Shown here piece by piece: positions 2,421 to 14,133 of a DNA stretch of 14,133 nucleotides. The DNA is taken from NCBI GenBank assembly GCA_003152795.1, contig PMBA01000091.1, forward strand, positions 975 through 15,107, in the 5' to 3' direction. Under the pieces are notes generated by a model, which saw nothing but the letters and a program-made list of their open reading frames with translations, had not been told where the DNA came from and did no database searches. A program made the translations under genes and the position numbers. The first letter of the stretch is position 1; every line of letters begins with the position of its first letter. Source of the DNA: Acidobacteriaceae bacterium (GTDB lineage Bacteria > Acidobacteriota > Terriglobia > Terriglobales > Acidobacteriaceae).

Positions 2421-3524
2421 TCAACATGGCTCGGCCTGGGGGTCAGAGCGGGTCAAAGCCCTTCCTGAGGAGTTGAACAGATGAGTTGCCTCGGAACGCG
2501 CGCGAAAAGCCACGTGATCGCCAGGCCGGGCTTGGGTATCGCCGTCGGTCTGTGCCACTAGCCTGGTTCCGTCCGCCAGCCGTGTGTGGAGATAGGCCCG
2601 CGGTCCCAAGTGCTCCAGCGCTTCGATCTCACCCCGCAACTCGCCCTCCGGCTCCAGCGCCAGGTGCTCCGCCCGAATTCCCAGCTTGATTTTTTCGTTA
2701 GCGTTCAGTTTTTGCAACGGCGCGGGTACGGTTATGCTCGTGCCACTCGTAAGCATCAGGGTCAGATGCTGTGCGTCAACCGTTTTGACCTCCGCGTCCA
2801 GGAAATTCATTTTCGGTGCGCCGATAAATCCTGCAACGAAAAACGTTGCGGGATGCTGGTAGAGCTCAAGAGGAGATCCCAATTGCTCAACGTTGCCCTG
2901 GTTGAGCACCACAATCCGGTCGGCCATAGTCATGGCTTCAAGCTGGTCGTGCGTGACGTAGATCATGGTGGTGTTAAGTTCTCGATGTAGCCGCGCCAAC
3001 TCCAGACGCATTTGGCCTTGCAGGGCGGCATCAAGATTCGAAAGTGGCTCATCCAACAGGAAGGCCTTCGGTTGCCGGACCATTGCGCGGCCGATGGCCA
3101 CACGCTGCAGTTGGCCTCCGGAAAGCTGGCTGGGCCTTCGTTCGAGCAAAGGCTCCATTTCCAGGATGCGCGCGACGGTGCGGACCTTCTGCTCTCGCTC
3201 TGCTTTCGGGGTTCCGCTCAGGCGCAGGCTGAAGCTCATGTTTTCCGCTACAGTCATGTGCGGATACAACGCATAACTCTGAAACACCATCGCCAAGCCG
3301 CGCTTTGCGGGTGGCACATCCTGCGCGGGCGAACCATCGATCAGGACTTCACCTTCCGTGACTTGTTCCAATCCAGCAATCATGCGCAGCAAGGTCGATT
3401 TACCACATCCCGACGGCCCCACGAAGGCGATGAATTCACGATCCTGGATCAGCAGGTCAATTCCATGAATCACTTCATGGGTCCCGAACTGCTTGCGCAC
3501 GTTTCTCAATTCGACTGTCGCCAT
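2421..3524 (-). CDS. smoK: ABC transporter ATP-binding protein, MalK/UgpC/SmoK type
   Basis: This 367-residue protein is the cytoplasmic ATPase of a carbohydrate importer. All nucleotide-binding motifs are intact: Walker A GPSGCGKST (36-44), Q-loop Gln82, signature LSGGQ (134-138), Walker B FLLDEP with D158/E159, D-loop SNLDA and switch His192 in YVTHDQ. After about residue 235 (GFIGAPKMNF) it continues into the C-terminal TOBE/OB regulatory region that defines the MalK/UgpC subfamily. It is the fourth gene of the transporter operon, 17 nt after the second permease. The symbol rests mainly on context: the neighbouring permeases and binding protein are SmoEFG-like, while the ATPase alone could equally be labelled ugpC or msmX. 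ATPases of this group are sometimes shared between several importers. Confidence 0.95.
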   Translation of the reverse strand: MATVELRNVRKQFGTHEVIHGIDLLIQDREFIAFVGPSGCGKSTLLRMIAGLEQVTEGEVLIDGSPAQDVPPAKRGLAMVFQSYALYPHMTVAENMSFSLRLSGTPKAEREQKVRTVARILEMEPLLERRPSQLSGGQLQRVAIGRAMVRQPKAFLLDEPLSNLDAALQGQMRLELARLHRELNTTMIYVTHDQLEAMTMADRIVVLNQGNVEQLGSPLELYQHPATFFVAGFIGAPKMNFLDAEVKTVDAQHLTLMLTSGTSITVPAPLQKLNANEKIKLGIRAEHLALEPEGELRGEIEALEHLGPRAYLHTRLADGTRLVAQTDGDTQARPGDHVAFRARSEATHLFNSSGRALTRSDPQAEPC

Positions 3525-3541
3525 CGTCTCCAGGCTCCCTT

Positions 3542-4363
3542 TTACTTAACCGCTCCGAACGATAGTCCGCGCACCATTTGCCGCTGGCTCATCCATCCAA
3601 AAATCAGGATGGGAGCAATCGACAGCGTGGAAGCCGCCGATAATTTCGCCCAGAAAAGACCTTCCGGACTGGAAAATGATGCGGTGAACGTGGTCAGCGT
3701 CGCGGCTTTCACCGTGGTCAGGTTTAGGCTCCAGAATGCTTCGTTCCAACAGAGAATTATGGAAAGCAGCGCCGTCGCAGCGATGCCTGGTGTGCACAGC
3801 GGCAGCAAAACGTGAACCAATTCCTCGATCTGCGTAGCGCCATCCATGCGGCTGGCCTCGAGGATCACCGCCGGCACTTCCCGAAAGAAGGAGAAGAGCA
3901 TCCACACCACGATGGGCAGAACGCTGATGCTGTCGATCAGGATCAACCCGAAGACGGTATCGAGCAGGCCGAGATCCCGCCACAGGAGGTAAATCGGAAC
4001 TAGGACGCCAACTGCCGGTAGCATTCTAGTGGAGAGCATCCAAAGCAGAATGTCGCGGGTCCGCCGTGTAGGAAAGAAGGCCATGCTGTAGGCGGCCGGG
4101 ATGGCCAGAGCCAGAGCCAGTAGGGTCGATCCCAGCGAAACCAGTACGCTATTTCTGGCGAACGCCAGATAATCGGCCCGCTCCAGCACGGCGTGATAGT
4201 TCTCCAACGTCGGGTGGAAAAACAATGCCGGTGGGGTGGCGACGGCGGCAATCTCGGTTTTAAAACTGCAGAGCAACATCCACAGGATGGGGAAGAACAT
4301 TCCCAGAGCAACGGCCCAAACCACGATCGCCAGCTCCCAGCGCACTTGCCCGATGCGTCTCAC
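3542..4363 (-). CDS. smoG: ABC transporter permease, MalG/SmoG-like (sugar-alcohol importer)
   Basis: A 273-residue inner-membrane permease with about six hydrophobic helices. The cytoplasmic EAA loop that docks on the ATPase is at about residues 169-188 (EASRMDGATQIEELVHVLLP). Long stretches match what I recall of SmoG/MtlG polyol permeases: MLPAVGVLVPIYLLWRDLGL, the WNEAFWSLNLT segment, FSSPEGLFWAKLSAAST and the terminal RGLSFGAVK. This is recall, not an alignment. The start ATG overlaps the stop of the upstream permease by 4 nt, which indicates translational coupling and a 1:1 heterodimer. No damage is seen. Confidence 0.94.
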   Translation of the reverse strand: MRRIGQVRWELAIVVWAVALGMFFPILWMLLCSFKTEIAAVATPPALFFHPTLENYHAVLERADYLAFARNSVLVSLGSTLLALALAIPAAYSMAFFPTRRTRDILLWMLSTRMLPAVGVLVPIYLLWRDLGLLDTVFGLILIDSISVLPIVVWMLFSFFREVPAVILEASRMDGATQIEELVHVLLPLCTPGIAATALLSIILCWNEAFWSLNLTTVKAATLTTFTASFSSPEGLFWAKLSAASTLSIAPILIFGWMSQRQMVRGLSFGAVK

Positions 4364-5250
4364 CGCAGATCCTCCAGGTTGCGCCCCACCACGCGCATGA
4401 GAAAAAAACAGACGATGTTCGCCAGGATGATGGCAATCACTCCTCCTGCCGAGGCGCGCCCCACGTCAAAGCCTAAGAGCGCATCGCGAAAGATCAGGTA
4501 AGCCAGATTGGTGGAAGCGAGCCCCGGGCCGCCGCCGGTGGCCACGTAAATTTCCGCGAAGAGGCTTAGGAAGAAAATCATCTCGATCATGGCCACCACC
4601 GCCATCGGCCGCAACAGATGCGGCAACTGGATGTAGCGGAAAAGTGCGATCGGTCCGCCGCCATCCAGCCGGGCAGCTTCTATCTGCTCGGGGTTGAGCG
4701 AGTGTAGCGCCGGCAACAGGATTAGCACGGCAAAAGGGGTCCATTCCCAGCCCACAATCAACACAATCGAGAGCATCGGCATGCGGGAGAAGAATTCGAT
4801 GGTGCCGAACCCGAGGGAACGCGTGATCCACGCGAAAAGGCCGAACACCGGGTTCATCAGCATGTTTTTCCAGATCAGCGCGCTCACCGTCGGCATCACA
4901 AAAAAAGGAGCGATAATCAGCAGGCGGCAAACATTGCGGCCAGGAAAATCCTGGTTGAGCAGCAACGAGAACAGCGTGCCAAAAATCAGAGTGATCGCAA
5001 GGACCAGGCCCACTAGGAACAGGGTGTTGCCCATCGCTATCCACAGCGCCCGATGAGTGAGCAAGTCACGATAATTCTCCCACCCGGCGAACGCCGTCTT
5101 CCCGGGTCTGAGCAGGTTATAGTGCTCGGCGGAAAACCAGAGCGTCATGGCCAGGGGCACGGCCATCCACAGGAAGAGCGCCCCGACGGACGGAGCGAGC
5201 AGTGGCCGGTGCAGGTGGCGGGTCGGTTTGCTAGCAACCTCTCCGGTCAC
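4360..5250 (-). CDS. smoF: ABC transporter permease, MalF/SmoF-like (sugar-alcohol importer)
   Basis: A 296-residue inner-membrane permease and the partner of the downstream gene. The hydrophobic helices begin at about residue 19. The EAA loop lies at about 191-210 (EAARLDGGGPIALFRYIQLP). The segments IIAPFFVMPTVSALIWKNML, FAEIYVATGGGPG and RASAGGVIAIILANIV are characteristic of the SmoF/MtlF group that imports sorbitol, mannitol and related polyols. Translation starts at GTG 5250, which overlaps the binding-protein stop (GTGA). The gene is therefore tightly coupled both upstream and downstream. The exact polyol cannot be read from the permease. Confidence 0.94.
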   Translation of the reverse strand: MTGEVASKPTRHLHRPLLAPSVGALFLWMAVPLAMTLWFSAEHYNLLRPGKTAFAGWENYRDLLTHRALWIAMGNTLFLVGLVLAITLIFGTLFSLLLNQDFPGRNVCRLLIIAPFFVMPTVSALIWKNMLMNPVFGLFAWITRSLGFGTIEFFSRMPMLSIVLIVGWEWTPFAVLILLPALHSLNPEQIEAARLDGGGPIALFRYIQLPHLLRPMAVVAMIEMIFFLSLFAEIYVATGGGPGLASTNLAYLIFRDALLGFDVGRASAGGVIAIILANIVCFFLMRVVGRNLEDLR

Positions 5251-6566
5251 TGGACGGATCTTCCTTTCAGCGAGCGTTCGGCTTCCGCTTGCGACAACGC
5301 CAGCGCCTGCTGGACCGTGGCGCGGCCTGCCAGCGCCGCACTGATTTCCTGTCCCACTTCGGCGCCAATGGCCTGAAATTCGGGAATTCCTACGTATTGA
5401 ACTTCCACGAAAGGAACCAGCGACCGGCTCCCTTTCGTGTAATCTGCGCTCAAGATGGCTTCGCGAACCAGTGGCGCAAAGGGAGCCGCTTGCAGGTAAG
5501 CGGGAATTTCATAGGTCGATTTTCGCGAGCCGGGAGGTATTCGCAACCAGCCGAAGCGCTCGCCAACCGTGGCGATGTACTGACGACTGGTGGCCCACTT
5601 GATAAATTGCTTAGCGATGTCAGCTCGCTTCGACGAGGCCGGGATCGCAAGTCCCCAACTCCAAACCCAGCCGGGGCCATTGGACACGTTCGCGATAGGT
5701 GCTTTGGCAAAATCGGTGGTGGTCGCCACGCGACTCTGGCTGGGATCGAGAAGGTAACCGGCAGCGGAAGTAGCGTCCACCCACATGGCACAATTTCCAT
5801 TGGCGAAGAGGGCGCGGTTCTCATTGTAGCCGTCGGTGATAGCGCCGGGCGGTCCGTACTTGCTGAGCAAGTCTACGTAAAAGCCCACAGCTTCGGCCCA
5901 GGCCCGACTGTTGAGCTGCGGCTTCAAGTCGGAGTCCATCCAGCGGCCTCCAAATGCGTGGACCAGTGTGCTGATGTAGGCGATATTCTGACCCCAGCCC
6001 GGTTCGCCGCGCAAACAGATGCCATAAACGTTATGTTCTGGGTCGTGCAGCTTTTGCGCGAACTGGCGTATCTGTTCGTAACTCGGCTGGACGGGCATTT
6101 CCAAGCCGGCTTTTCGAAATAGGTCCTTGCGATAGTAGGTAAAGGCACTCTCTCCATAGAAGGGCGCGGCGTACATCCGGCCCCGATAAGAGAGGCCTTG
6201 ACGCACCACGTCAAAGATATCGTCGTATCCGTAGTCCGCGCCCAGATCATCGAGTGGAACCAGCCAGCCGCGCTCCCCCCAGAGGGGAGCTTCATACGAA
6301 CCGATCGTTATGACATCGAAGGTGTTGCTTCCCGTGGAAATATCTATCGTCAGACGCTGGCGCAGGATGTTCTCCCCCAGCACTACCCAGTTCAACTTAA
6401 CGCCGCTCTGTTTTTCAAACTCCGAAGAGAGCTGCTGCATCAAGATCATGTCGGCATTGTTCACGGTAGCGACCGTCAGCTCCGGACGTCGGCCGGGATG
6501 ATAGAGAATCCATGCGAGGAGCACCACGCCCGCCAACAGTCCGATTGCTTTCCAGATCCGGCTCAT
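5247..6566 (-). CDS. smoE: Extracellular polyol-binding protein (family 1), SmoE/MtlE-like, probably membrane-anchored
   Basis: A 439-residue solute-binding protein that captures the substrate in the periplasm for the adjacent permeases. The mature part strongly recalls SmoE/MtlE: LTVATVNNADMI, FDVITIGSYEAPLWGERGWL, MYAAPFYGESAFTYYRKDLF, GICLRGEPGWGQN, NCAMWVDATSAAGY, SWGLAIPASS and VQYVGIPEFQAIG. The N-terminus is unusual. A basic start and a hydrophobic segment (about residues 6-22) run into HPGRRPEL without an Ala-x-Ala site or a lipobox Cys, so the protein may stay tethered as an inner-membrane anchor. Possible starts are TTG 6626, ATG 6575 and ATG 6566; I chose 6566 because a GGGATGG sequence lies about 5 nt upstream. 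First gene of the tightly coupled transporter block. Confidence 0.93.
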   Translation of the reverse strand: MSRIWKAIGLLAGVVLLAWILYHPGRRPELTVATVNNADMILMQQLSSEFEKQSGVKLNWVVLGENILRQRLTIDISTGSNTFDVITIGSYEAPLWGERGWLVPLDDLGADYGYDDIFDVVRQGLSYRGRMYAAPFYGESAFTYYRKDLFRKAGLEMPVQPSYEQIRQFAQKLHDPEHNVYGICLRGEPGWGQNIAYISTLVHAFGGRWMDSDLKPQLNSRAWAEAVGFYVDLLSKYGPPGAITDGYNENRALFANGNCAMWVDATSAAGYLLDPSQSRVATTTDFAKAPIANVSNGPGWVWSWGLAIPASSKRADIAKQFIKWATSRQYIATVGERFGWLRIPPGSRKSTYEIPAYLQAAPFAPLVREAILSADYTKGSRSLVPFVEVQYVGIPEFQAIGAEVGQEISAALAGRATVQQALALSQAEAERSLKGRSVQ

Positions 6567-6844
6567 AAGTGCCATCCCAGAATCAACGTGGCAAAGGGGT
6601 TTGGCTCTCCGCCCCTGCGTCCACAATTCAGCGGGTATATTCGACCCGATCGCGCAAGCTCCTTACAGGACCTGCGCAACCTACATTGCCAGTGCCAGCT
6701 TAGCCACAAGCGACGATGACCGCATCCGGCGAGCATCTGCGCGCGATAAACCCTTTGCGACGTTTGCGGAAGATGAGTTTGGTTAGACCGCCGAGTTCGA
6801 CTTTCGCCATCTGTATCTCATCTCTCAACAATCCTTGATCCGCA
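6567..6844 (-). other. Intergenic region between dehydrogenase and binding-protein genes
   Basis: About 280 nt with no convincing gene. It contains an imperfect hairpin at 6652-6677 (outer arms GCGCA/TGCGC, inner TCCT/AGGA around a TAC loop) with no T-run after it on either strand, so it is not a classical terminator. A direct repeat of TTTGCG lies near 6746-6760. The length suggests that the transporter genes could have their own promoter here, but I cannot point to a clear -35/-10 pair. Confidence 0.4.
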
Positions 6845-7615
6845 TTACCACGCCGTATAACCGCCATCCACGCTCAGTACAGACCCGGTGATGTAACTGG
6901 CTGCTTCGCTAGCGAGAAAGAGCACCGCCGTGGCTACCTCGCTCGGTTCGCCGCTGCGGGCAAAGGGTGTCATCTCGTCCCAGCATGCACTCCATTCCTT
7001 CCTTTGGCGCCCGCGCAACGTCATTGCCGTTGCAATATATCCGGGCGCCACAGCGTTCACGCGCACGCCGAACTTAGCCCATTCGCATGCAAGCGATTTC
7101 GTCAGGTGGTGAACCGCGGCTTTGCTCGCATTGTAGGGAGCCTGTGGCTGCGGCTTATTCACGATAATTCCCGACATCGAACCAATGTTTACCACGCTGC
7201 CTCGCCGGGCAGCGATCATATGCCCTCCGAAAGCGCGGCAGCAAAAGAACACGCCGTCAAGATTGATGCGCATCAGCTTGTAATACTCTTCGTCGCCATA
7301 CGCGGTTGCGTCGATGTTATCGGCGTAGCCTGCGTTGTTGACCAGCACGTCGACTTTCCCGTATTTCTTGAGCACAGCATCTGCGACCTGCTTCACAGCC
7401 TTTGAATCGGTGACGTCGAGAGGAAACAGCTCCGCCCGGTATCTTTCGTTCGTTAATTTCTCGACCGCCTCTCGGCCGTTGGTCTGGTCAATTTCCAAGA
7501 CTGCGATCGTCGCTCCGGCTTCCCCCAGAGCACGGGCAATCTCAAAACCGATTCCGCGGCCGGCTCCGGTAACTACGGCGATCTGGTCTTTCAAAAGAAA
7601 CTTCTCAGCGTACAT
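6845..7615 (-). CDS. Short-chain dehydrogenase/reductase, probable polyol dehydrogenase
   Basis: A 256-residue classical SDR, an NAD(P)-dependent cytoplasmic oxidoreductase. It shows the nucleotide motif TGAGRGIG (16-23), NNAG (93-96), Asn118, catalytic Ser148, Tyr161 and Lys165 in PYNASK, and the usual end ITGSVLSVDGGYTAW. An acidic residue at the end of the second strand (Glu41 in VLEID) favours NAD over NADP. The MSGIIVNKPQPQAPYNASKAA region resembles arabitol, xylulose and threitol dehydrogenases, so oxidation of the imported polyol to a ketose is the likely job; this is inference supported by the SmoEFGK-like importer downstream. A GTG at 7621 is in frame, but GGGAGG (7622-7627) sits 6 nt before ATG 7615, so I start there. 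It lies 278 nt upstream of the binding-protein gene. Confidence 0.9.
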   Translation of the reverse strand: MYAEKFLLKDQIAVVTGAGRGIGFEIARALGEAGATIAVLEIDQTNGREAVEKLTNERYRAELFPLDVTDSKAVKQVADAVLKKYGKVDVLVNNAGYADNIDATAYGDEEYYKLMRINLDGVFFCCRAFGGHMIAARRGSVVNIGSMSGIIVNKPQPQAPYNASKAAVHHLTKSLACEWAKFGVRVNAVAPGYIATAMTLRGRQRKEWSACWDEMTPFARSGEPSEVATAVLFLASEAASYITGSVLSVDGGYTAW

Positions 7616-7617
7616 GA

Positions 7618-8025
7618 TCACCCTCCCAGGATAATGAACCTACTGTCGCATGTTGTGGTAACCCGCTTACGACGAAGAGAACAGCCCACGCCAATGGACT
7701 TCACGGTTTCGATTGCCGCGCGGCTTTGTGACGTAGGAAAGGCACGAACCAAGATGTGGAATGCCTCTGGCAGGCCACTCGTGGCGATCCGTCCAAACAG
7801 TTCCAACGTCTTGCCCTTCGGGGTGGCCATAAAGACAAAGAAACTGAGGTTTGGCCGCGTCCTCGAGACTGCATCACCTGGTTCAACCACTTCCCAGTCT
7901 GGTTCGGCTTCCCCATTTTCGGCAACCACGGTCTTGCCCAGGATTGCCTTCAACTCCCGCGCTGAGATATGGCGTCGACTTGGGGTACGTAGCCCCGGAC
8001 TACACCTACCCAGGTTTTGCCTCAA
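7618..8025 (-). CDS. Hypothetical 135-codon open frame spanning the receptor-SDR gap (contains the HsdR relic)
   Basis: An uninterrupted frame begins at TTG 8023-8025, overlapping the receptor's TGA stop, and ends in TGA at 7618-7620, three bases before the SDR start ATG. It thus bridges exactly the space between the two genes. Its middle (about residues 22-90) is the HsdR relic. The first ~20 residues (rich in R, G and S) and the last ~45 residues match nothing I recognise. The frame could be chance openness, or a chimeric leftover whose translation helps couple the receptor and the dehydrogenase. Lack of a clear ribosome binding site for the TTG argues against a real protein. Confidence 0.2.
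   Translation of the reverse strand: MRQNLGRCSPGLRTPSRRHISARELKAILGKTVVAENGEAEPDWEVVEPGDAVSRTRPNLSFFVFMATPKGKTLELFGRIATSGLPEAFHILVRAFPTSQSRAAIETVKSIGVGCSLRRKRVTTTCDSRFIILGG
7622..7627 (-). promoter_or_regulatory. Ribosome binding site deciding the SDR start
   Basis: The minus strand reads GGGAGG, then GTGATC, then ATG. The 6-nt spacing to ATG 7615 is ideal, whereas the alternative GTG at 7621 would directly abut the site. The site also lies over the end of the upstream open frame, whose TGA is at 7618-7620. Confidence 0.75.
7756..7965 (-). pseudogene. hsdR: Relic of type I restriction enzyme R subunit (HsdR), internal fragment
   Basis: About 70 codons on the minus strand read as an internal piece of HsdR, the DNA translocase/nuclease subunit of type I restriction systems. 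The matching segment runs from ARELKAILGKTVVAENG through EPDWE and RPNLSFFVFMATPKGKTLEL to FGR...GLPEAFH. Family members have a very similar block (PNLSFFAFTATPKGKTLELFGR then PFHLYSMRQAIEEGF) in the first motor domain. Here the conserved TATPK helicase motif has become MATPK, and similarity stops right after AFH. A real HsdR is around 1000 residues, so well under a tenth remains. No HsdM, HsdS or other HsdR part is nearby. The identification rests on recalled family motifs and was not searched. Confidence 0.7.
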
Positions 8026-11000
8026 AACGTCAATACGCCGGTCACAACGATGATGCGGCCAGAACTGGGCGACCCAAACGATCCATAGGGGCTGGTTGGC
8101 GCCACCACGTCGCTTGTGATCAAACCCAGATTGGGGAGCGATGCATTATTGTTCGGCGCGGCGAAATTGGTGTGGTTGAATACGTTGAATGCCTGCGCAC
8201 CCACTTTGAACTGCATGCTCCCCTCCTGGAAAATGTTCTTATACACGCTCAAATCGACGTCGGCGTAGTGCGGCCCATAGAAGGCATTACGCGGCACGTT
8301 GCCGAAATTGGTCTGCGCAGGATCGTTGTACGGGTCCTGATTCGATACCCCAGAACCGTTAAAGAAATGGCCCTGGAAGCACGGGTGGGAAAACGAATTA
8401 CAGGAATGATTGAAGTGATTGTCCAGTACGTCCGCCAGCACGTAGTAATTGCCTGTGCCGTTGTATAGGTCGTTTTCAGCATTGCTATTGAACACGCTGA
8501 AGGGAAGGCCGGACCGCCAAAAGGCCTTGCCGCCAATCGTCCAGCCACCTGCGGCAAAATTAACAATTTTGTTTCGGAAATGGTTCGGCTCAACATATAT
8601 GAGATCGGCCAGAAAATTATGGCGGATGTCATAGTCGGCGTTCGAGTACATCAGCAGCGATGTGTGGTTCGGCACAATCTGGTAAGGAAGGCCATTGTTG
8701 TTAAAGTCCTCAGACTGGCCGCCGTTAGAAACGTCGTCGAGTGCGTGTGAATATGTGTAGGAGAAATTCGCAGTCACACCGTAACGATTGATGTGCTTGT
8801 AGATAACCGAGATCCCGTTATATCCAGATATGGCGTTATCGTTGATAATTCCCATCTGTCCGAACCGCGGATCGGGCGGATTGACCGGAACGTCCTCGAA
8901 ACTGGTATAGGCCGATGGAGGCGTGTATGCGTTTCCGGCCAGGTTCTGGTTAATTGCGTAATCGTAGCTGACCAGATCGTAGCCATGGTTCCCCACGTAG
9001 GAAAGGACCACAGCATCGGAACGGTCGAGCTGCATCTGGATTTGCAAACTCCACTCCAGATATTTCGGGCTCACAACGTGCTGCGGAGTCAAGTAGTGGG
9101 CGGGCGCAAAGAATGGTACGCCCGGCGGCAGCGACGCCTCCAGTTGGTTAGCGTTCAGCCCTGTGGAGAACCCGGCCGTAAGAGCGTTGTAGGAAGCGAG
9201 GGCGAAGGCTGGCGCGCTTCCCGGCCCCTGCCCCACGTTTCCAGCCTCTACGAATGCGCCGTAGTTGTCGGGAAAGGTCAAGTACTGATTTTCGATCAAC
9301 GCGCCGGGAAATGCGTCCGCGAAGACGCCCACGCCGCCGCGGAGGATGAACTTTCCGGTGCCTTTTGTATCCCAGTTGAAACCGAAGCGCGGCTGGATGA
9401 TGGCCATTTCCAGTGAGGAGAAGACTTTGTCATAGCCGGTAGCGATGGTCTGGTTGTACGGTGTGTCCAGGGTGACGTTCGTCGGTGGAAAGCCGCCGAG
9501 ATAGCGCGAAAAACAACTCGTGTTGCACCGGATATTTCCATTGCGGTCCACGCGGACACCGTAATCGAGAACCAATCGCCGAGTGGCCCTCCATTCATCC
9601 TGCGCGTAGATGCCGTAGTTGTAACCAGCCAGACTGATTTCCTTGACTTGATCAAAGGTCTGCTGAAAGTTCGAACCTGCCGATCCCGGCAGCACGCCGC
9701 CGGCGAGGTCGCCAAGACTGTTGAAGGTGTAATACCCGGCGTATGTATTCACCGTCGGGTAGCCGTCGGTGATGTCATATCGCTTGAAGTTGGCCCCGAA
9801 TTTCAGATTGTGGCCTCCTTTCAGCCAGGAAAGATCGTCCACGAATTGATATTGGGTGGAGTTAGTTGTTGTAGGATGGCCGCCCCAATCGAAACCAACT
9901 CTGCCACTCTGGCCCAGCCCGGTGGAAAAGTTGGTGCCGCCATCGGAACCATTGTTGAACTGCGCGGGCGATACCGCCAGCGTCTTCTGCAGATTTGCGG
10001 GGCCGAACGGCCACGAATAGTGGAAGCCCGATGCAATAAATTGATTGGTCACATTGGGGCCAAAAATGTACGTGTGGTTCAACTGACCGTTAAAAATGGG
10101 CTGCTTGCTGACCACGTTCAATAGTGGATTCACGACGCTGATGAAATTCGGCTGGAAGCCCTGATCGTCGCTAATCCGGACAAAGAGCTTCTGCTTGTCG
10201 TTGATGTTCCAGTCGCCGCGGCCAATGATCATATACTCGGTCAGTGCGCCGCTTGTTACGCCCGCCGCCGACGTCATGCACGCAATCGCCGTTCCCGAGG
10301 CGCCGGTCGGAACGGTGCCGAAATACGTGTTCGGCTGGCCATACACCGGTGTACCGGCATACGAGCCGCAACCGAGAGTCCCGCTCAAATCCTGAAGCGG
10401 ACCGTTTCCTGTCGTGACCGGCGCGGCGGTGCTGTAAAACGGTGACGTCTGCAGCAGATTAAACATCTGCGTATAGAGCGGCACGCTGCCGGCAGGAATT
10501 GTATTCAGGGTCGTGTTCTGAAATGCGGCGGTGGGAAAATTGACATAGCTGGTGGATGGCTGAACGTACCGAATACCTTCGGTGTCAGCGAAGAAAAACA
10601 ACTTCTTGCGGATAATCGGACCGCCAATCTGGGCTGAATATTGGTTGGAAACAGCCTTTTGCCGCGGTATGCCATTCAGGTTATTGAAGAAATCATTGGC
10701 GTTCAGGACGTCGCCGTTGTAGGTGTAATTCAACAAGCCATGGATGCGGTTGGTTCCGCTTTTCGTGACGTAGGTTTGGACAGCGCCCGCCTGACGACCC
10801 CATTCCGTGCTGTAGCCGTTCTGTACCAGCGACGCCTGATCGATTTCCGACGCACCGATGCTGAGCGTGGATGCGCCGACAGTGGAGACGTTGAAGAATG
10901 AGTCCGTCTGGTCGGCGCCGTTCAATATGATGAGGTTGGAAATGCCTGGAAGTCCGGCGGAACTGAAATTCCCGGTGGAAAATCCGTGGGAACCGTTCGT

Positions 11001-11600
11001 GTTTACTACAACGCCGGGCGCGGTGAAAGCAAAGGTCGTGATGTCACCGCCGGGACTAGGCAGGTTTTCAAATTGCTCCGTGGTAAACGTCGTGGTTATG
11101 TTGGCGGTCTGGGTGTCGACTAATTGCGCATTGTTCGCGCTGACCGTAATCGTCTCTTTGCTGCCCGTCGGGGTCACGGTCAAGTTGGACACGGACTGTT
11201 GGCTGACGAGAATCAAGACCGAAATCGCATTCGACTGGAGTCCCTGGGCGGAGGCCGAAACCGTATAGGCGCCCGGCTTCAGGAACGGGACGGTGTACAG
11301 ACCGCGGTCGTTCGTCGTCAGCGTGCGGGTAGCGCCGGTAGCGGTTTCCACGACGGTGACCGTCGCTCCGGGAACCACAGCTTCCGTGGAGTCGGTGACG
11401 ACGCCGTTCAGGCTTCCGGTGACGGCCGTTTGAGCCGATGCGTAGGGAGTCCCGTTCCAGCAGAGCATTCCAACCATCGCAATGGCGGCAACAATCCAAA
11501 ACCGACCGACGCTCACTCCGAAGCGGCCGGAGAACATTCGATGAAGACCCAAGGACGATCTGCACGACGTGAAATGGAAAGCAAGTACTTGGTTGCGCAT
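8022..11600 (-). CDS. TonB-dependent receptor with N-terminal carboxypeptidase-regulatory-like domain (Oar-like)
   Basis: A 1192-residue outer-membrane protein for TonB-driven uptake. A long signal peptide (hydrophobic core about 35-48, cleavage near ASA-Q, residues 54-57) precedes a carboxypeptidase regulatory-like beta domain (about 60-140: GSLNGVVTDSTEAVVPGATVTV). A plug-like region follows (about 150-300), and then a large beta-barrel. Typical landmarks are GGPIIRKKLFFFADTEGIRY, EWSLQIQMQLDRSDAVVLSYVGNHG, HNFLADLIYVEP and the final aromatic residue in VVTGVLTF, the barrel assembly signal. This architecture is common in Acidobacteriota, where such receptors are thought to import sugars or oligomers. 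Upstream in-frame codons to 11735 exist, but ATG 11600 has GGAGGG (11605-11610) 4 nt before it. The gene heads the minus-strand run, and a promoter and palindromic operator lie about 100-155 nt upstream. Confidence 0.93.
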   Translation of the reverse strand: MRNQVLAFHFTSCRSSLGLHRMFSGRFGVSVGRFWIVAAIAMVGMLCWNGTPYASAQTAVTGSLNGVVTDSTEAVVPGATVTVVETATGATRTLTTNDRGLYTVPFLKPGAYTVSASAQGLQSNAISVLILVSQQSVSNLTVTPTGSKETITVSANNAQLVDTQTANITTTFTTEQFENLPSPGGDITTFAFTAPGVVVNTNGSHGFSTGNFSSAGLPGISNLIILNGADQTDSFFNVSTVGASTLSIGASEIDQASLVQNGYSTEWGRQAGAVQTYVTKSGTNRIHGLLNYTYNGDVLNANDFFNNLNGIPRQKAVSNQYSAQIGGPIIRKKLFFFADTEGIRYVQPSTSYVNFPTAAFQNTTLNTIPAGSVPLYTQMFNLLQTSPFYSTAAPVTTGNGPLQDLSGTLGCGSYAGTPVYGQPNTYFGTVPTGASGTAIACMTSAAGVTSGALTEYMIIGRGDWNINDKQKLFVRISDDQGFQPNFISVVNPLLNVVSKQPIFNGQLNHTYIFGPNVTNQFIASGFHYSWPFGPANLQKTLAVSPAQFNNGSDGGTNFSTGLGQSGRVGFDWGGHPTTTNSTQYQFVDDLSWLKGGHNLKFGANFKRYDITDGYPTVNTYAGYYTFNSLGDLAGGVLPGSAGSNFQQTFDQVKEISLAGYNYGIYAQDEWRATRRLVLDYGVRVDRNGNIRCNTSCFSRYLGGFPPTNVTLDTPYNQTIATGYDKVFSSLEMAIIQPRFGFNWDTKGTGKFILRGGVGVFADAFPGALIENQYLTFPDNYGAFVEAGNVGQGPGSAPAFALASYNALTAGFSTGLNANQLEASLPPGVPFFAPAHYLTPQHVVSPKYLEWSLQIQMQLDRSDAVVLSYVGNHGYDLVSYDYAINQNLAGNAYTPPSAYTSFEDVPVNPPDPRFGQMGIINDNAISGYNGISVIYKHINRYGVTANFSYTYSHALDDVSNGGQSEDFNNNGLPYQIVPNHTSLLMYSNADYDIRHNFLADLIYVEPNHFRNKIVNFAAGGWTIGGKAFWRSGLPFSVFNSNAENDLYNGTGNYYVLADVLDNHFNHSCNSFSHPCFQGHFFNGSGVSNQDPYNDPAQTNFGNVPRNAFYGPHYADVDLSVYKNIFQEGSMQFKVGAQAFNVFNHTNFAAPNNNASLPNLGLITSDVVAPTSPYGSFGSPSSGRIIVVTGVLTF

Positions 11601-11705: not shown

Positions 11706-11735
11706 CCTATACTCCCCCCTCTCTTCGGTTGTCAA
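11706..11735 (-). promoter_or_regulatory. Predicted sigma-70-type promoter of the TonB receptor gene
   Basis: The minus strand carries a perfect TTGACA (11735-11730), an 18-nt spacer and TATAGG (11711-11706). Transcription would start near 11699 and leave a leader of about 100 nt before ATG 11600. The palindromic operator ends 8 nt upstream of the -35 box. An alternative promoter with TATAGA inside the operator (11758-11753) and TTGTTG 16 nt further upstream is also possible, and would place the palindrome over a -10 region. Confidence 0.5.
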
Positions 11736-11772
11736 TAATGAAAAGAATCGATTCTATAATCCAATATTGACA
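11722..11772 (-). repeat. Composite promoter/operator element, left copy (inverted relative to the right copy)
   Basis: On the minus strand this 51-bp element reads TGTCAAT, a 7-nt spacer, TATAGAATCGATTCT, 8 nt, TTGACA, 1 nt, CCGAAGA. The 50-bp copy at 12454-12503 on the plus strand has the same blocks in the same order, with at least 40 positions identical by eye. Each copy points towards the gene next to it: this one towards the TonB receptor. TGTCAA and TTGACA also form an outer dyad around the central palindrome. Confidence 0.7.
11744..11755. promoter_or_regulatory. Palindromic operator AGAATCGATTCT (LacI/GalR-like), receptor side
   Basis: A perfect 12-bp palindrome with a central CG, the form typical of LacI/GalR-family operators. 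It recurs exactly at 12470-12481. Its place upstream of a sugar-uptake receptor promoter supports a carbohydrate-responsive regulator. The regulator family is inferred from the operator shape only. Confidence 0.6.
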
Positions 11773-12015
11773 CGCAACAAAATATGTCAGGTGAGGGGAT
11801 AGAAAAGTCGCTATCTATATTTAGGTACATACATATACCAATATTCAGATTGTTCCAAGTGGAGCGGGTGAATCGGATCATGATCGGAATATCGATACTA
11901 TCTAGGAAGTTTTTCTATGCTGTGGATCAAGCTGTCGGAGCAGGCACAGTCTCGGGCTTCGCCCAAGGCTGGCGCCTCAGCGATTCAGAGCTGCAAAAGG
12001 AGAAGGGGATTGCTG
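11773..12015. other. AT-rich gene-free stretch
   Basis: About 240 nt between the left operator element and the lysA relic. The first ~140 nt are visibly AT-rich compared with all the surrounding genes. Open frames exist on the plus strand but show no recognisable protein signature. A degenerate operator-like sequence around TATCGATACTAT lies at 11890-11901; its right half matches the palindrome in 9 of 10 positions. The end of the stretch (about 11999-12008) carries the AGGAGAAGGG ribosome-site sequence of the lysA relic. Confidence 0.45.
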
Positions 12016-12451
12016 GTGAAGCGCACCGCGAAATCTAAGTTCCTACCGCCCCCGGCCTTTGTCTACCAGTGCGGGGTCGGTGGCGGGGGCCAACGCGTCT
12101 TGTTTTGTGAATCGGTCTCCCCTGGAACGGCTCGCGGCGAGTTATGGAACGCCGCTCTACGTGCACTCGACAGCGATGATCCGCGAGCGCATAAAGGCAT
12201 TCGCCCGCGCTTTCCGCTTGATCCCGCACACGCTTTGCTATTCCGTGAAGGCCAACTCCTCGTTGGCGATCTTGCGCTTAATCGCGCGCGAGAGTGCGGG
12301 GTTCGATGTGCTTTCCGGGGGAGAGCTCGAAAGAGTTCTACGCGTGGATCGCCACGCAGCAAACCGCGTGGTCTATTCCGGTGTCGGTAAGACCGTGCCG
12401 GAAATGGAGCTCGCCCTACGGGCCGGAATCCTCCTGTTCAACATTTCCTAG
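12016..12451 (+). pseudogene. lysA: Diaminopimelate decarboxylase (lysA), frameshifted and 3'-truncated relic
   Basis: LysA is a PLP enzyme that makes lysine from meso-diaminopimelate. From GTG 12016 (GAAGGGG 7 nt upstream) one frame gives FLPPPAFVYQCG...VLFCESV. After one extra T at about 12118 the next frame continues with PLERLAASYGTPLYVHS, CYSVKAN (PLP lysine codon at 12248), AGFDVLSGGELERVL and VVYSGVGKTVPEMELALRAGILLFN. Together these follow the LysA N-terminal half in order. The frame then hits TAG (12449-12451), exactly where similarity to the usual FNVES continuation ends. Only about 145 of ~420 residues remain, and the whole C-terminal domain is missing. It cannot encode an active enzyme; a functional lysA should exist elsewhere. 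The break lies two bases from the right copy of the regulatory element. Confidence 0.82.
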
Positions 12452-12453
12452 CT

Positions 12454-12503
12454 TGTCAATTCACAGTATAGAATCGATTCTATTTATTGTTGACAGCCGA
12501 AGA
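12454..12503 (+). repeat. Composite promoter/operator element, right copy
   Basis: This plus-strand element reads TGTCAAT, a 6-nt spacer, TATAGAATCGATTCT, 8 nt, TTGACA, 1 nt, CCGAAGA. It matches the minus-strand copy at 11722-11772 block for block. It begins immediately after the broken end of lysA and points towards the esterase. TTGACA (12490-12495) would be a perfect -35 box, but no good -10 is seen 16-19 nt downstream, so the true promoter of the esterase is unresolved. Confidence 0.68.
12468..12483. promoter_or_regulatory. 16-bp palindromic operator ATAGAATCGATTCTAT (LacI/GalR-like), esterase side
   Basis: A perfect 16-bp palindrome with a central CG, containing the same 12-bp core as the site at 11744-11755. 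It lies about 90 nt upstream of the esterase start and suggests shared control of the esterase and the TonB receptor. Confidence 0.62.
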
Positions 12504-12570
12504 TGAGGGTGTTGCCACTGCCACTGTTATTTTGTTCTCCATCGGCATGCCTGCTCATGGAAGAGGGAAC

Positions 12571-14133
12571 ATGATTAGAGCGTCGACGATATTGATCGCG
12601 GCCCTCCTGCTCTCCGAGAGCATCGCAAACACTCAAGCTCCCGCCGTCTCCGCACCGGAGGTCACAACCGCGTCCGGAGTCCTCGCAGGTATCCATTTCG
12701 GTCCCGGGCGGAGTGAGGTAGCCTTCCTCGGCATCCCCTACGCTGCACCGCCCATCGGCAACCGTCGTTGGCTGCCGCCACAACCGGCGAGCAACTGGTC
12801 TGGCATCCGCTCGGCGAAGCAATTCGCTCCAACTTGCCCACAGCTCCCCTCTTCGTGGTGGCCGGAAATGGCGGGTCGTGAGCGCTTGGAAACCAGTGAA
12901 GATTGCCTTTATCTCAACGTCTGGACCACAAACCTGCCGGACGCCATGAAGCAGCCGGTGATGGTGTGGATCCACGGAGGCGGCAATGTGGAAGGCTCGA
13001 GTCAAATACCACCTCTTGCTCCGGCACTCGCTCGAAGAGGAGTTGTGGTGGTCACCGTCGAATATCGTCTGGGGGTGCTCGGTTTCTTGGCTCATCCGGC
13101 CCTGACAGCCGAATCACGGCATCATTCCTCCGGAAATTACGGCTTACTTGACCAAATTGCCGCACTCGAATGGGTACGGCACAACATTGCAGCCTTTGGG
13201 GGCGACCCGAACTCAGTCACAATATTTGGCGAATCGTCCGGCGCAGAGGATGTTTGCCATTTATTGGTATCGCCTCTCAGTGTGGGACTCTTTCATAAAG
13301 CCATTCTTGAAAGTAGCGTCTGTTTGGATTCTGTTTATTCTGCCTTGACAATACCACCAGACTTCTACGGCAATCACCGACTCGGAGAAGCCTTAGGCAT
13401 CCGACTTTCTGCTGCTCTTGGAATCGCGAATGATACGAATGCGCTGGCCTCTTTGCGCGCTCTGGCACCGGACAAGCTGCTGGAAGCGGCGCATAACCTA
13501 ATGTCCGCAGACTTCGATGTCATCGTTGACGGATGGGTGGTGCAAAATCAGCCCGCAATAACCTTTAAGATGCGACGCCAGGCGCTGGTCCCCGTGCTGG
13601 TCGGCAGCAATGCCGACGAGACTACGGTCTTCGGGAAACCGTCGCCGCTCGCTACCACGGATTCTCGCCCGAAAAATATCGCGCAATACCGGCAGTGGCT
13701 GGCGAACGAATTCCGCGAGTTCGCCAACGATGTTTGGAAAGTCTATCCTGCAACCTCCGATGCGGAGGTCGAGAACGTGCTTGTTCGTATGCAAACGGAT
13801 TACGGCTATGGATTTGGATCGTATGCGTTGGCGAAAGCAATGTCGGACGCAGGCCAGCCTGCGTATCTGTACTACTTTACTTACGTCGGACGCGATCCTT
13901 TTGCCGTGCTTGGCGCATTCCATAGCGAGGAAATGATGTTTATTGGTGACACCTATTGGAAAAGCTGGGTGCCCAACTCAGACGATGAGAAACTCTCAAA
14001 AATAATGGGGGACTACTGGGTGCAGTTCGCAAAAAGCGGCAACCCCAACCGTCGCGGTCTTCCGGAATGGCCCCTCTATAAAGAAAAGAGTGGGCGGTGT
14101 ATGGAACTTGGGCGCGAAGTAAAATCCCGTTCG
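12571..14133 (+). CDS. Secreted type B carboxylesterase, 3' end outside window
   Basis: The frame is open from 12571 through the last base of the window (521 codons, no stop), so the gene is almost complete but cut. An N-terminal hydrophobic stretch (ASTILIAALLLSESIANTQA) is a signal peptide, so the enzyme acts in the periplasm or outside. Family marks are VAFLGIPYAAPPIGNRRW, EDCLYLNVW, the oxyanion-hole segment VMVWIHGGGN, and the nucleophile elbow FGESSGA with Ser222. The catalytic Glu350 is in GSNADE and His451 in GAFHSEE, with spacing as in acetylcholinesterase and p-nitrobenzyl esterase. Most relatives have GESAG; here it is GESSG. ATG 12571 is preceded by AGAGGG 3-4 nt upstream; ATG 12547 is also in frame but lacks a ribosome site. 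The palindromic operator upstream ties it to the receptor. Substrate unknown; an acylated sugar or polyol would fit the locus. Confidence 0.93.
   Translation, partial: MIRASTILIAALLLSESIANTQAPAVSAPEVTTASGVLAGIHFGPGRSEVAFLGIPYAAPPIGNRRWLPPQPASNWSGIRSAKQFAPTCPQLPSSWWPEMAGRERLETSEDCLYLNVWTTNLPDAMKQPVMVWIHGGGNVEGSSQIPPLAPALARRGVVVVTVEYRLGVLGFLAHPALTAESRHHSSGNYGLLDQIAALEWVRHNIAAFGGDPNSVTIFGESSGAEDVCHLLVSPLSVGLFHKAILESSVCLDSVYSALTIPPDFYGNHRLGEALGIRLSAALGIANDTNALASLRALAPDKLLEAAHNLMSADFDVIVDGWVVQNQPAITFKMRRQALVPVLVGSNADETTVFGKPSPLATTDSRPKNIAQYRQWLANEFREFANDVWKVYPATSDAEVENVLVRMQTDYGYGFGSYALAKAMSDAGQPAYLYYFTYVGRDPFAVLGAFHSEEMMFIGDTYWKSWVPNSDDEKLSKIMGDYWVQFAKSGNPNRRGLPEWPLYKEKSGRCMELGREVKSRS

What the first reader, a model, noticed from the sequence alone, without database searches (positions are those of the whole stretch)
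11722..12503. Two inverted copies of a ~50-bp promoter/operator element drive genes apart
The block order TGTCAAT, TATAGAATCGATTCT, TTGACA, CCGAAGA occurs on the minus strand at 11772-11722 facing the TonB receptor and on the plus strand at 12454-12503 facing the esterase. Spacings are nearly the same (7 versus 6 nt, then 8 and 1 nt in both). Such conservation well beyond a bare palindrome means either duplication of one regulatory unit or strong selection on a multi-part site. It predicts one regulator for uptake and hydrolysis genes and marks the boundaries of a rearranged segment. The outer TGTCAA/TTGACA dyad is extra structure not expected for a simple LacI-type operator.
Basis: partly seen in the sequence, partly recalled or inferred. 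Interest (0 to 1): 0.75.

Follow-up and report, generated by a model that had tools for sequence, protein, structure and literature searches.

The report
Paired LacI-type operator-promoters in Acidobacteria
Two near-identical control switches in the genome of an Acidobacteria-type bacterium appear to put an outer-membrane nutrient receptor and an ester-cutting enzyme under one sugar-sensing regulator, which looks like an ordinary kind of sugar-use control circuit whose parts have been shuffled around the genome.

Summary
The composite element (operator TATAGAATCGATTCT, 8 nt, TTGACA, 1 nt, CCGAAGA) lies at 11722-11772(-) and 12454-12503(+); none of 200 shuffles reproduces it. It reads as a LacI-family operator just upstream of a -35 box. 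The same composite precedes a mutarotase / symporter / isomerase operon on another contig of this genome (C243) and in two related MAGs (bog_202, fen_85). A model built from the window copies alone ranks exactly those three promoters next after the window in 24 genomes. On C243 and in bog_202 the nearby LacI-family gene has tandem copies of the operator, making it the likely, autoregulated regulator. The window esterase is an 86% paralogue of one on C243. Copy 2 is a relative of the C243 operon promoter (77% over 77 bp) joined to the esterase at 12533/12534, next to a truncated decarboxylase fragment. So shared regulation and a duplicated regulatory unit are supported, and copy 2 marks rearrangement junctions; nothing shows this for copy 1. 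The outer TGTCAA arm is not at a fixed position and is missing in one promoter. Verdict: new member of a known kind (local LacI regulon). Binding, sign of control and ligand are inferred, not shown.

The parts
11722..11772 (-). Composite regulatory element, copy 1, facing the TonB-dependent receptor
11744..11755 (-). LacI-type operator of copy 1 (AGAATCGATTCT, CG centre)
   Evidence: like sites upstream of LacI genes
11730..11735 (-). -35-like TTGACA of copy 1, 8 nt downstream of the operator
11706..11711 (-). Putative -10 TATAGG, 18 nt after TTGACA (4 of 6 to consensus)
8022..11600 (-). TonB-dependent receptor-like outer membrane protein (CarboxypepD_reg + OMP_b-brl_4); start taken at the ATG at 11600, preceded by GGAGG
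   Evidence: start codon chosen by eye
11979..12445 (+). Truncated, frameshifted 5' fragment of a lysA-like (PLP-dependent decarboxylase, PF02784) gene; 86% DNA match to an intact copy in bog_202 (G017:C17); the name lysA is by eye
12454..12503 (+). Composite regulatory element, copy 2, facing the esterase
12470..12481 (+). LacI-type operator of copy 2 (core of ATAGAATCGATTCTAT)
12490..12495 (+). -35-like TTGACA of copy 2 (no clear -10)
12459..12533 (+). Promoter block homologous to the C243 operon promoter (77%, E 4e-8 against the contig); meets the esterase block at 12533/12534
12571..14133 (+). Carboxylesterase (COesterase, PF00135), runs off the window; 86% protein paralogue on C243
   Evidence: start codon chosen by eye

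Best explanation
Both copies are promoters of one local LacI-family regulon for uptake and breakdown of an unidentified (perhaps esterified) sugar compound. Each has a 12-16 bp LacI operator centred about 14 bp upstream of the -35 box TTGACA, hence near -50. The likely regulator is the RbsR/PurR-like LacI-family protein encoded on contig C243 (L113:6650-7720), divergent from a mutarotase / SSS symporter / isomerase / esterase gene run with the same promoter type, and carrying two tandem operators before its own gene. Inferred mechanism: without ligand the protein sits on the operators and represses its own gene, the operon, the receptor and the esterase; a sugar ligand releases it. Copy 2 arose when a copy of this operon promoter and an esterase copy came together behind a decarboxylase-gene relic. 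Shown: sequence homology, positions, gene linkage, recurrence in two other genomes. Inferred: binding, sign of control, ligand, order of events. The 0.8 is for one LacI regulon whatever the sign; repression by itself I put at about 0.55.
For: Window-only model R2 on 24 genomes: after the two window copies (E 1e-9), the next three hits are G017:C186:3114 (E 0.022), G000:C243:6106 (0.064) and G018:C37:553 (0.073), all upstream of the same orthologous operon; the next is E 0.44 (the same three lead in 34 loci). Operator-to-TTGACA spacing 8, 8, 9, 8, 8 in five promoters whose flanks 21-60 nt upstream are only 17-38% identical. LacI gene near the operon in C243 and bog_202 (85% identical) with tandem AGAATCGATTCA / AGATTCGAATCT in a 39-nt stretch identical in both. 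Among 24 genus genomes a LacI at 80% identity or more was found only in G000 and G017. LacI relatives of 41-43% identity also carry such sites before their starts: L198 and L224 within 2 mismatches, L199 at 3. The esterase stands with this operon in C243, palsa_359 (L189/L196) and L206; a TonB receptor in bog_202 and palsa_359. CG-centred even palindromes are characteristic of LacI-family sites and 72% of the regulators studied were autoregulated (PMC4052901: section 9 read; passages).
Against: No LacI gene was found on the window's contig; the assembly has 10 LacI-family genes and binding was not testable. One of the others (C426, L093) has AGAATTCGTATTCT before its start: the same half-sites AGAAT/ATTCT, 2 bp further apart. 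The two closest non-orthologous relatives of the regulator lack the site (L197, 49% identity, has CGAAACGTTACG; L201, 47%, none listed); in all, 6 of 11 LacI genes examined have no GAATCGATTC-type site (one of the six, L209, has only ACAATCGATCGT). Only 3 of 18 mutarotase loci examined have the composite. The operator alone is not rare: at 2 mismatches 13 places in 24 genomes against 6 for the reversed control pattern. Held-out E-values are individually weak (0.02-0.07). Copy 2 lacks a -10. The window receptor is only about 25% identical to those of bog_202 and palsa_359. An operator centred near -50 is not the textbook repressor position.
Confidence: 0.8

Rival explanations
1. Same regulon, but the LacI-family protein activates these promoters: bound at about -50 it contacts RNA polymerase, while it represses its own gene through the site next to its extended -10. 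(This is a rival on the sign of control only and overlaps the 0.8 above.)
For: Operator-to-TTGACA distance 8-9 nt in 5 of 5 promoters across diverged flanks; weak or missing -10 boxes; in the lacI promoter the second operator runs into TGCTAT(A/C)CT (by eye).
Against: The promoters may be homologous, so spacing could be inherited; in L198 (G081) a related operator, at 3 mismatches, lies downstream of TTGACA-17-TTAAAT, a repressor position (spacing by eye). Activation by LacI-family proteins such as Cra is recalled, with one passage naming Cra an activator.
Confidence: 0.25
2. The repeats are ends of a mobile element or a MITE-like insertion (terminal inverted repeats of the 11722-12503 segment), not regulatory sites.
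For: Inverted orientation, 708 nt apart; junctions beside copy 2 and a broken gene between the copies.
Against: No transposase-like ORF seen between them among ORFs of 80 aa or more (by eye); the same element occurs singly upstream of the same operon in C243, bog_202 and fen_85; the operator part also stands before LacI genes.
Confidence: 0.04
3. Another regulator, not the C243 LacI, binds the element (one of the other nine LacI-family proteins, or a non-LacI protein reading the TTGACA/TGTCAA arms).
For: 10 LacI-family genes in the assembly, which is 82% complete; one on C426 has AGAATTCGTATTCT before it; a 47% identical paralogue on C435 stands beside a receptor-like gene (receptor by eye); TGTCAA-like arm in 4 of 5 promoters.
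Against: Apart from the wider-spaced C426 site, no AGAATCGATTCT-like palindrome was listed upstream of the other nine LacI genes (up to 350 nt each, filter CG-centred 14-mers with at least 6 of 7 pairs, which itself missed one of the two C243 sites).
Confidence: 0.13

Closest known systems
Local LacI-family sugar regulons (comparative genomics, PMC4052901; section 9 and passages read)
   Same: CG-centred even palindrome, site before the LacI gene itself, linked transporter and sugar enzymes, tandem sites
   Different: Genes of the proposed regulon are dispersed on at least two contigs; operator sits upstream of -35 at a near-fixed distance; tandem sites 19 bp apart, not at the 13/22/32 bp peaks reported there
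Xanthomonas sux locus: LacI/GalR-family SuxR controlling TonB receptor SuxA, transporter SuxC and amylosucrase SuxB (PMC1790865; passages read)
   Same: One LacI-family protein controls an outer-membrane TonB receptor, an inner-membrane transporter and an enzyme
   Different: Other phylum; symporter of the SSS family; esterase/isomerase/mutarotase instead of amylosucrase; parts not in one locus; no experiment here
RbsR / PurR subgroup of LacI-family proteins
   Same: Best NCBIfam and PDB-sequence matches of the C243 regulator
   Different: 262 bits against the RbsR cut-off of 531, so not assignable as RbsR; target genes differ

Membership tests
Local LacI-family regulon | Even palindromic site with central CG | tested here: met
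   AGAATCGATTCT exact in both copies; feature from PMC4052901
Local LacI-family regulon | LacI-family gene linked to a target operon bearing the site | tested here: met
   C243 and bog_202 loci; not so on the window contig itself, which has no LacI hit
Local LacI-family regulon | Site before the regulator gene itself (autoregulation) | tested here: met
   Sites starting 111/92 and 112/93 nt before the start in C243 and bog_202; presence of the site only, control not shown
Local LacI-family regulon | Target genes share a function | tested here: inconclusive
   Receptor, esterase, mutarotase, symporter and isomerase stand together in palsa_359; substrate unknown; the window receptor is not orthologous to that one
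Local LacI-family regulon | Regulator binds the sites in vitro or in vivo | not testable with these tools
   needs EMSA, DAP-seq or ChIP
Xanthomonas-type carbohydrate-uptake (TonB receptor) locus | Receptor, inner-membrane transporter, enzyme and regulator in one locus | tested here: not met
   Parts are split between C268 and C243 in this assembly (whether the contigs are neighbours is unknown); in palsa_359 they are together, with a divergent LacI only 31% identical
Insertion element with terminal inverted repeats | Paired repeats flank a mobile unit or occur paired elsewhere | tested here: not met
   Single copies at the same operon elsewhere; no transposase-like ORF between the copies (by eye)

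The most novel reading that the evidence does not exclude
A LacI-family protein in Acidobacteriota that activates a dispersed nutrient-uptake regulon from an operator held at a fixed distance (8-9 nt) upstream of the -35 box, with the operator-promoter cassette duplicated and captured by new genes such as the window esterase.
Probability: 0.22. Interest if true: 0.45.

Novelty: new member of a known kind. Interest (0 to 1): 0.3.

Why it matters
Two searches of open-access papers combining Acidobacteria with LacI terms listed no paper whose title or abstract start describes a LacI regulon of this phylum (and 2 papers listed), and the LacI regulon survey PMC4052901 does not contain the word Acidobacteria in its held text. 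The locus gives a concrete, testable operator, regulator and target set, and shows a promoter block moved to a new gene, a plausible route by which such regulons spread over a genome.

Tried and rejected
TonB-receptor relatives as a footprint: in 27 related receptor loci besides the window's own (31-43% identity) no AGAATCGATTCT-like exact 12-bp palindrome was seen upstream; imperfect sites were not tested there, and 5 of the 27 have less than 400 nt of upstream DNA (L039, L041, L047, L049, L054). One search was the same idea with wrong strand handling and is discarded. Loose pattern GAATCGATTC-N9-TTGACA with 1 mismatch in 150 genomes: 18 genomes with 23 places, reversed control 1; besides the window only the fen_85 (G018) hit was followed. 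Operator alone at 2 mismatches, 24 genomes: 13 places, reversed control 6; apart from G000 and G017 they were not followed, except that the G007 and G011 contigs were scanned for further motifs and one G006 place came up again as a weak R2 hit. R1 over 120 genomes: 30 genomes have a hit at E<=1; the four strong ones are its training set; fen_85 (E 1e-3) counted; the G035 hit (E 0.002) lies by an endonuclease III-like gene (by eye) with a degenerate operator and was set aside; the other weaker hits were not examined except C435. R1 over 33 named loci: 4 hits, bog_202 (training), fen_85, and weak ones in L208 and L224, the latter just upstream of a LacI gene. Three weaker R2 hits (two in G003, one in G006) look like chance. 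C435 (LacI paralogue, R1 hit E 0.19) was read without a clear operator. Mutarotase search: 42 matches in 36 of 200 genomes; upstream DNA of 18 of them was examined. Divergent promoters from the TGTCAA arm: by eye only bog_202 shows a possible -10; not pursued. Looping between the two copies: not tested. The order of events (promoter joined to esterase, or esterase added to the C243 operon) could not be decided. No structure prediction was run. L151 and L154-L157 were fetched and not examined; L153 was looked at only through its overlapping locus L123; L158 was only scanned.

Full report
CHECK. It is the first inverted repeat listed for the window (37 nt, 89%, 708 nt between the arms), and none of 200 shuffles holds its composite pattern. 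In the 4.72 Mb, 475-contig, 82%-complete assembly only these two places match AGAATCGATTCT-N8-TTGACA exactly.

WHERE ELSE. Searching the 16-bp operator with up to 2 mismatches in 24 genus genomes gave 13 places in 8 genomes (reversed control pattern: 6 places), so the operator alone is not rare. The own genome has three places: the two in the window and C243:6537, about 100 nt before a LacI-family gene. C243 (L113) carries LacI 6650-7720(+) and, divergently, orthologues of three bog_202 proteins plus an esterase 86% identical to the window's. The bog_202 proteins were named by family scans: a mutarotase-like protein (NF052227, 283 of 550 bits needed), an SSS symporter (PF00474) and a fucose-isomerase-like protein (PF07881, 23.6 of 28 bits needed). 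The C243 contig has N gaps that split some of these frames. Upstream of that gene run lies TATAGAAGCGATGCT-N9-TTGACA. In G017 the same operon has TATAGCAACGATTCT-N8-TTGACA, a divergent TonB receptor and an 85% identical LacI. In G018 the same operon has AGAAACGATTCA-N8-TTGACA about 115 nt before the mutarotase.

HELD-OUT TEST. Model R2 was built from the two window copies only. In 24 genomes its best hits outside the window are exactly the three operon promoters (E 0.022, 0.064, 0.073), the next being E 0.44. In 34 loci the same three lead. Individually these E-values are weak and only roughly calibrated; the force lies in all three marking one orthologous operon.

ANATOMY. Operator to TTGACA is 8, 8, 9, 8, 8 nt (copy 1, copy 2, C243, G017, G018). 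TTGACA was part of the pattern that found G018, but C243 and G017 were found by the operator alone. Operators are 75-100% identical pairwise; the 20 nt after TTGACA 25-65%, the next 40 nt 15-40%, the 20 nt before the operator 15-50%, the 40 nt before that 17-38%. So the core is conserved beyond its surroundings. Best -10 candidates are TATAGG (18 nt, copy 1), TATCAA (18, C243), AATAAT (19, G017) and TCGAAT (18, G018); copy 2 has none above 2 of 6. TGTCAA is 11, 10 and 16 nt before the operator, AGTCAA at 12 in G018, absent in C243, so it is not a fixed part. Before the LacI genes GATAGAATCGATTCATTTGCGAAGATTCGAATCTGCTAT is identical in C243 and G017, the second site running into an extended -10-like TGCTAT(A/C)CT (by eye), an arrangement that fits autorepression.

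REGULATOR. The C243 protein has LacI and Peripla_BP_3 domains and matches RbsR/PurR models below their cut-offs. Of 11 LacI genes examined (C243, G017 and the nine others listed, which printed matches above 30% identity), four have an operator within 2 mismatches before the start (L113, L114, L198, L224), one at 3 mismatches (L199, TGAAACGATTCA), and six have no GAATCGATTC-type site, among them the two closest non-orthologues (L197 at 49%, with CGAAACGTTACG, and L201 at 47%). Among the other nine LacI genes of the own genome, one (C426) has AGAATTCGTATTCT, the same half-sites 2 bp wider. Of 18 mutarotase loci examined (of 42 matches) 3 carry the composite.

LINKED FUNCTION. In palsa_359 a TonB receptor, an esterase (54% to the window's), the mutarotase, symporter and isomerase stand on one strand in a row, with a divergent LacI only 31% identical and no operator within 2 mismatches. 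In L206 an esterase (52%) precedes the mutarotase. So the esterase accompanies this operon in three genomes and a receptor in two; in our genome the set is spread over C268 and C243. Among 61 genomes the best relative of the window receptor has 43% identity.

REARRANGEMENT. Window 12534-13650 matches C243 1117-1 (87.5%) and window 12459-12533 matches C243 6149-6073 (77%, E 4e-8 against that contig); the blocks meet at 12533/12534. Window 11979-12445 is 86% identical to the start of an intact lysA-like gene in bog_202; here it is frameshifted and its match ends just before copy 2. The only other match to that stretch in the own genome is 70% identical. Hence copy 2 sits in a mosaic; nothing comparable was found at copy 1.

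READING. This fits a local LacI-family regulon of the kind catalogued in PMC4052901 (section 9 read; passages) and resembles the experimentally shown SuxR control of a TonB receptor in Xanthomonas (PMC1790865, passages). Repression is the default reading; activation from about -50 is a live alternative because the spacing is so constant. Substrate and sign of control are unknown.

Noticed in passing
window 2421-7621 (-): Downstream of the receptor: SDR dehydrogenase, solute-binding protein, two permease-like ORFs and a UgpC/MalK-type ATPase (sugar ABC transporter), then an M19 dipeptidase; the contig has no copy of the 12-bp operator within 2 mismatches outside the two elements (permeases by eye).
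   Followed up: partly
window 11979-12445: Frameshifted, truncated lysA-like fragment; an intact 435-aa copy in bog_202 (L115:6336-7643).
   Followed up: partly
L113:1-1086: Second esterase copy of the same genome, 86% identical, cut by the contig end.
   Followed up: yes
L191 about 9700-9770 (G078): A different LacI-type palindrome (CGTAACGTTTCG) lies 1 nt upstream of TTGACA-17-TAAAAG: again an operator directly upstream of a -35-like box (read by eye).
   Followed up: partly
L114 8060-8560: Apparent remnant of a transposase-like gene between the isomerase and lacI in bog_202 (judged by eye).
   Followed up: no
G000:C435 (L150:4549-9549): Paralogous LacI (47%) divergent from another receptor-like gene, with nearby alpha-mannosidase-like and GH92-like genes (names by eye), probably a separate glycan locus.
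   Followed up: partly
L093 (G000:C426): AGAATTCGTATTCT 44 nt before a LacI gene of another subgroup: same half-sites as the window operator but 2 bp further apart.
   Followed up: no
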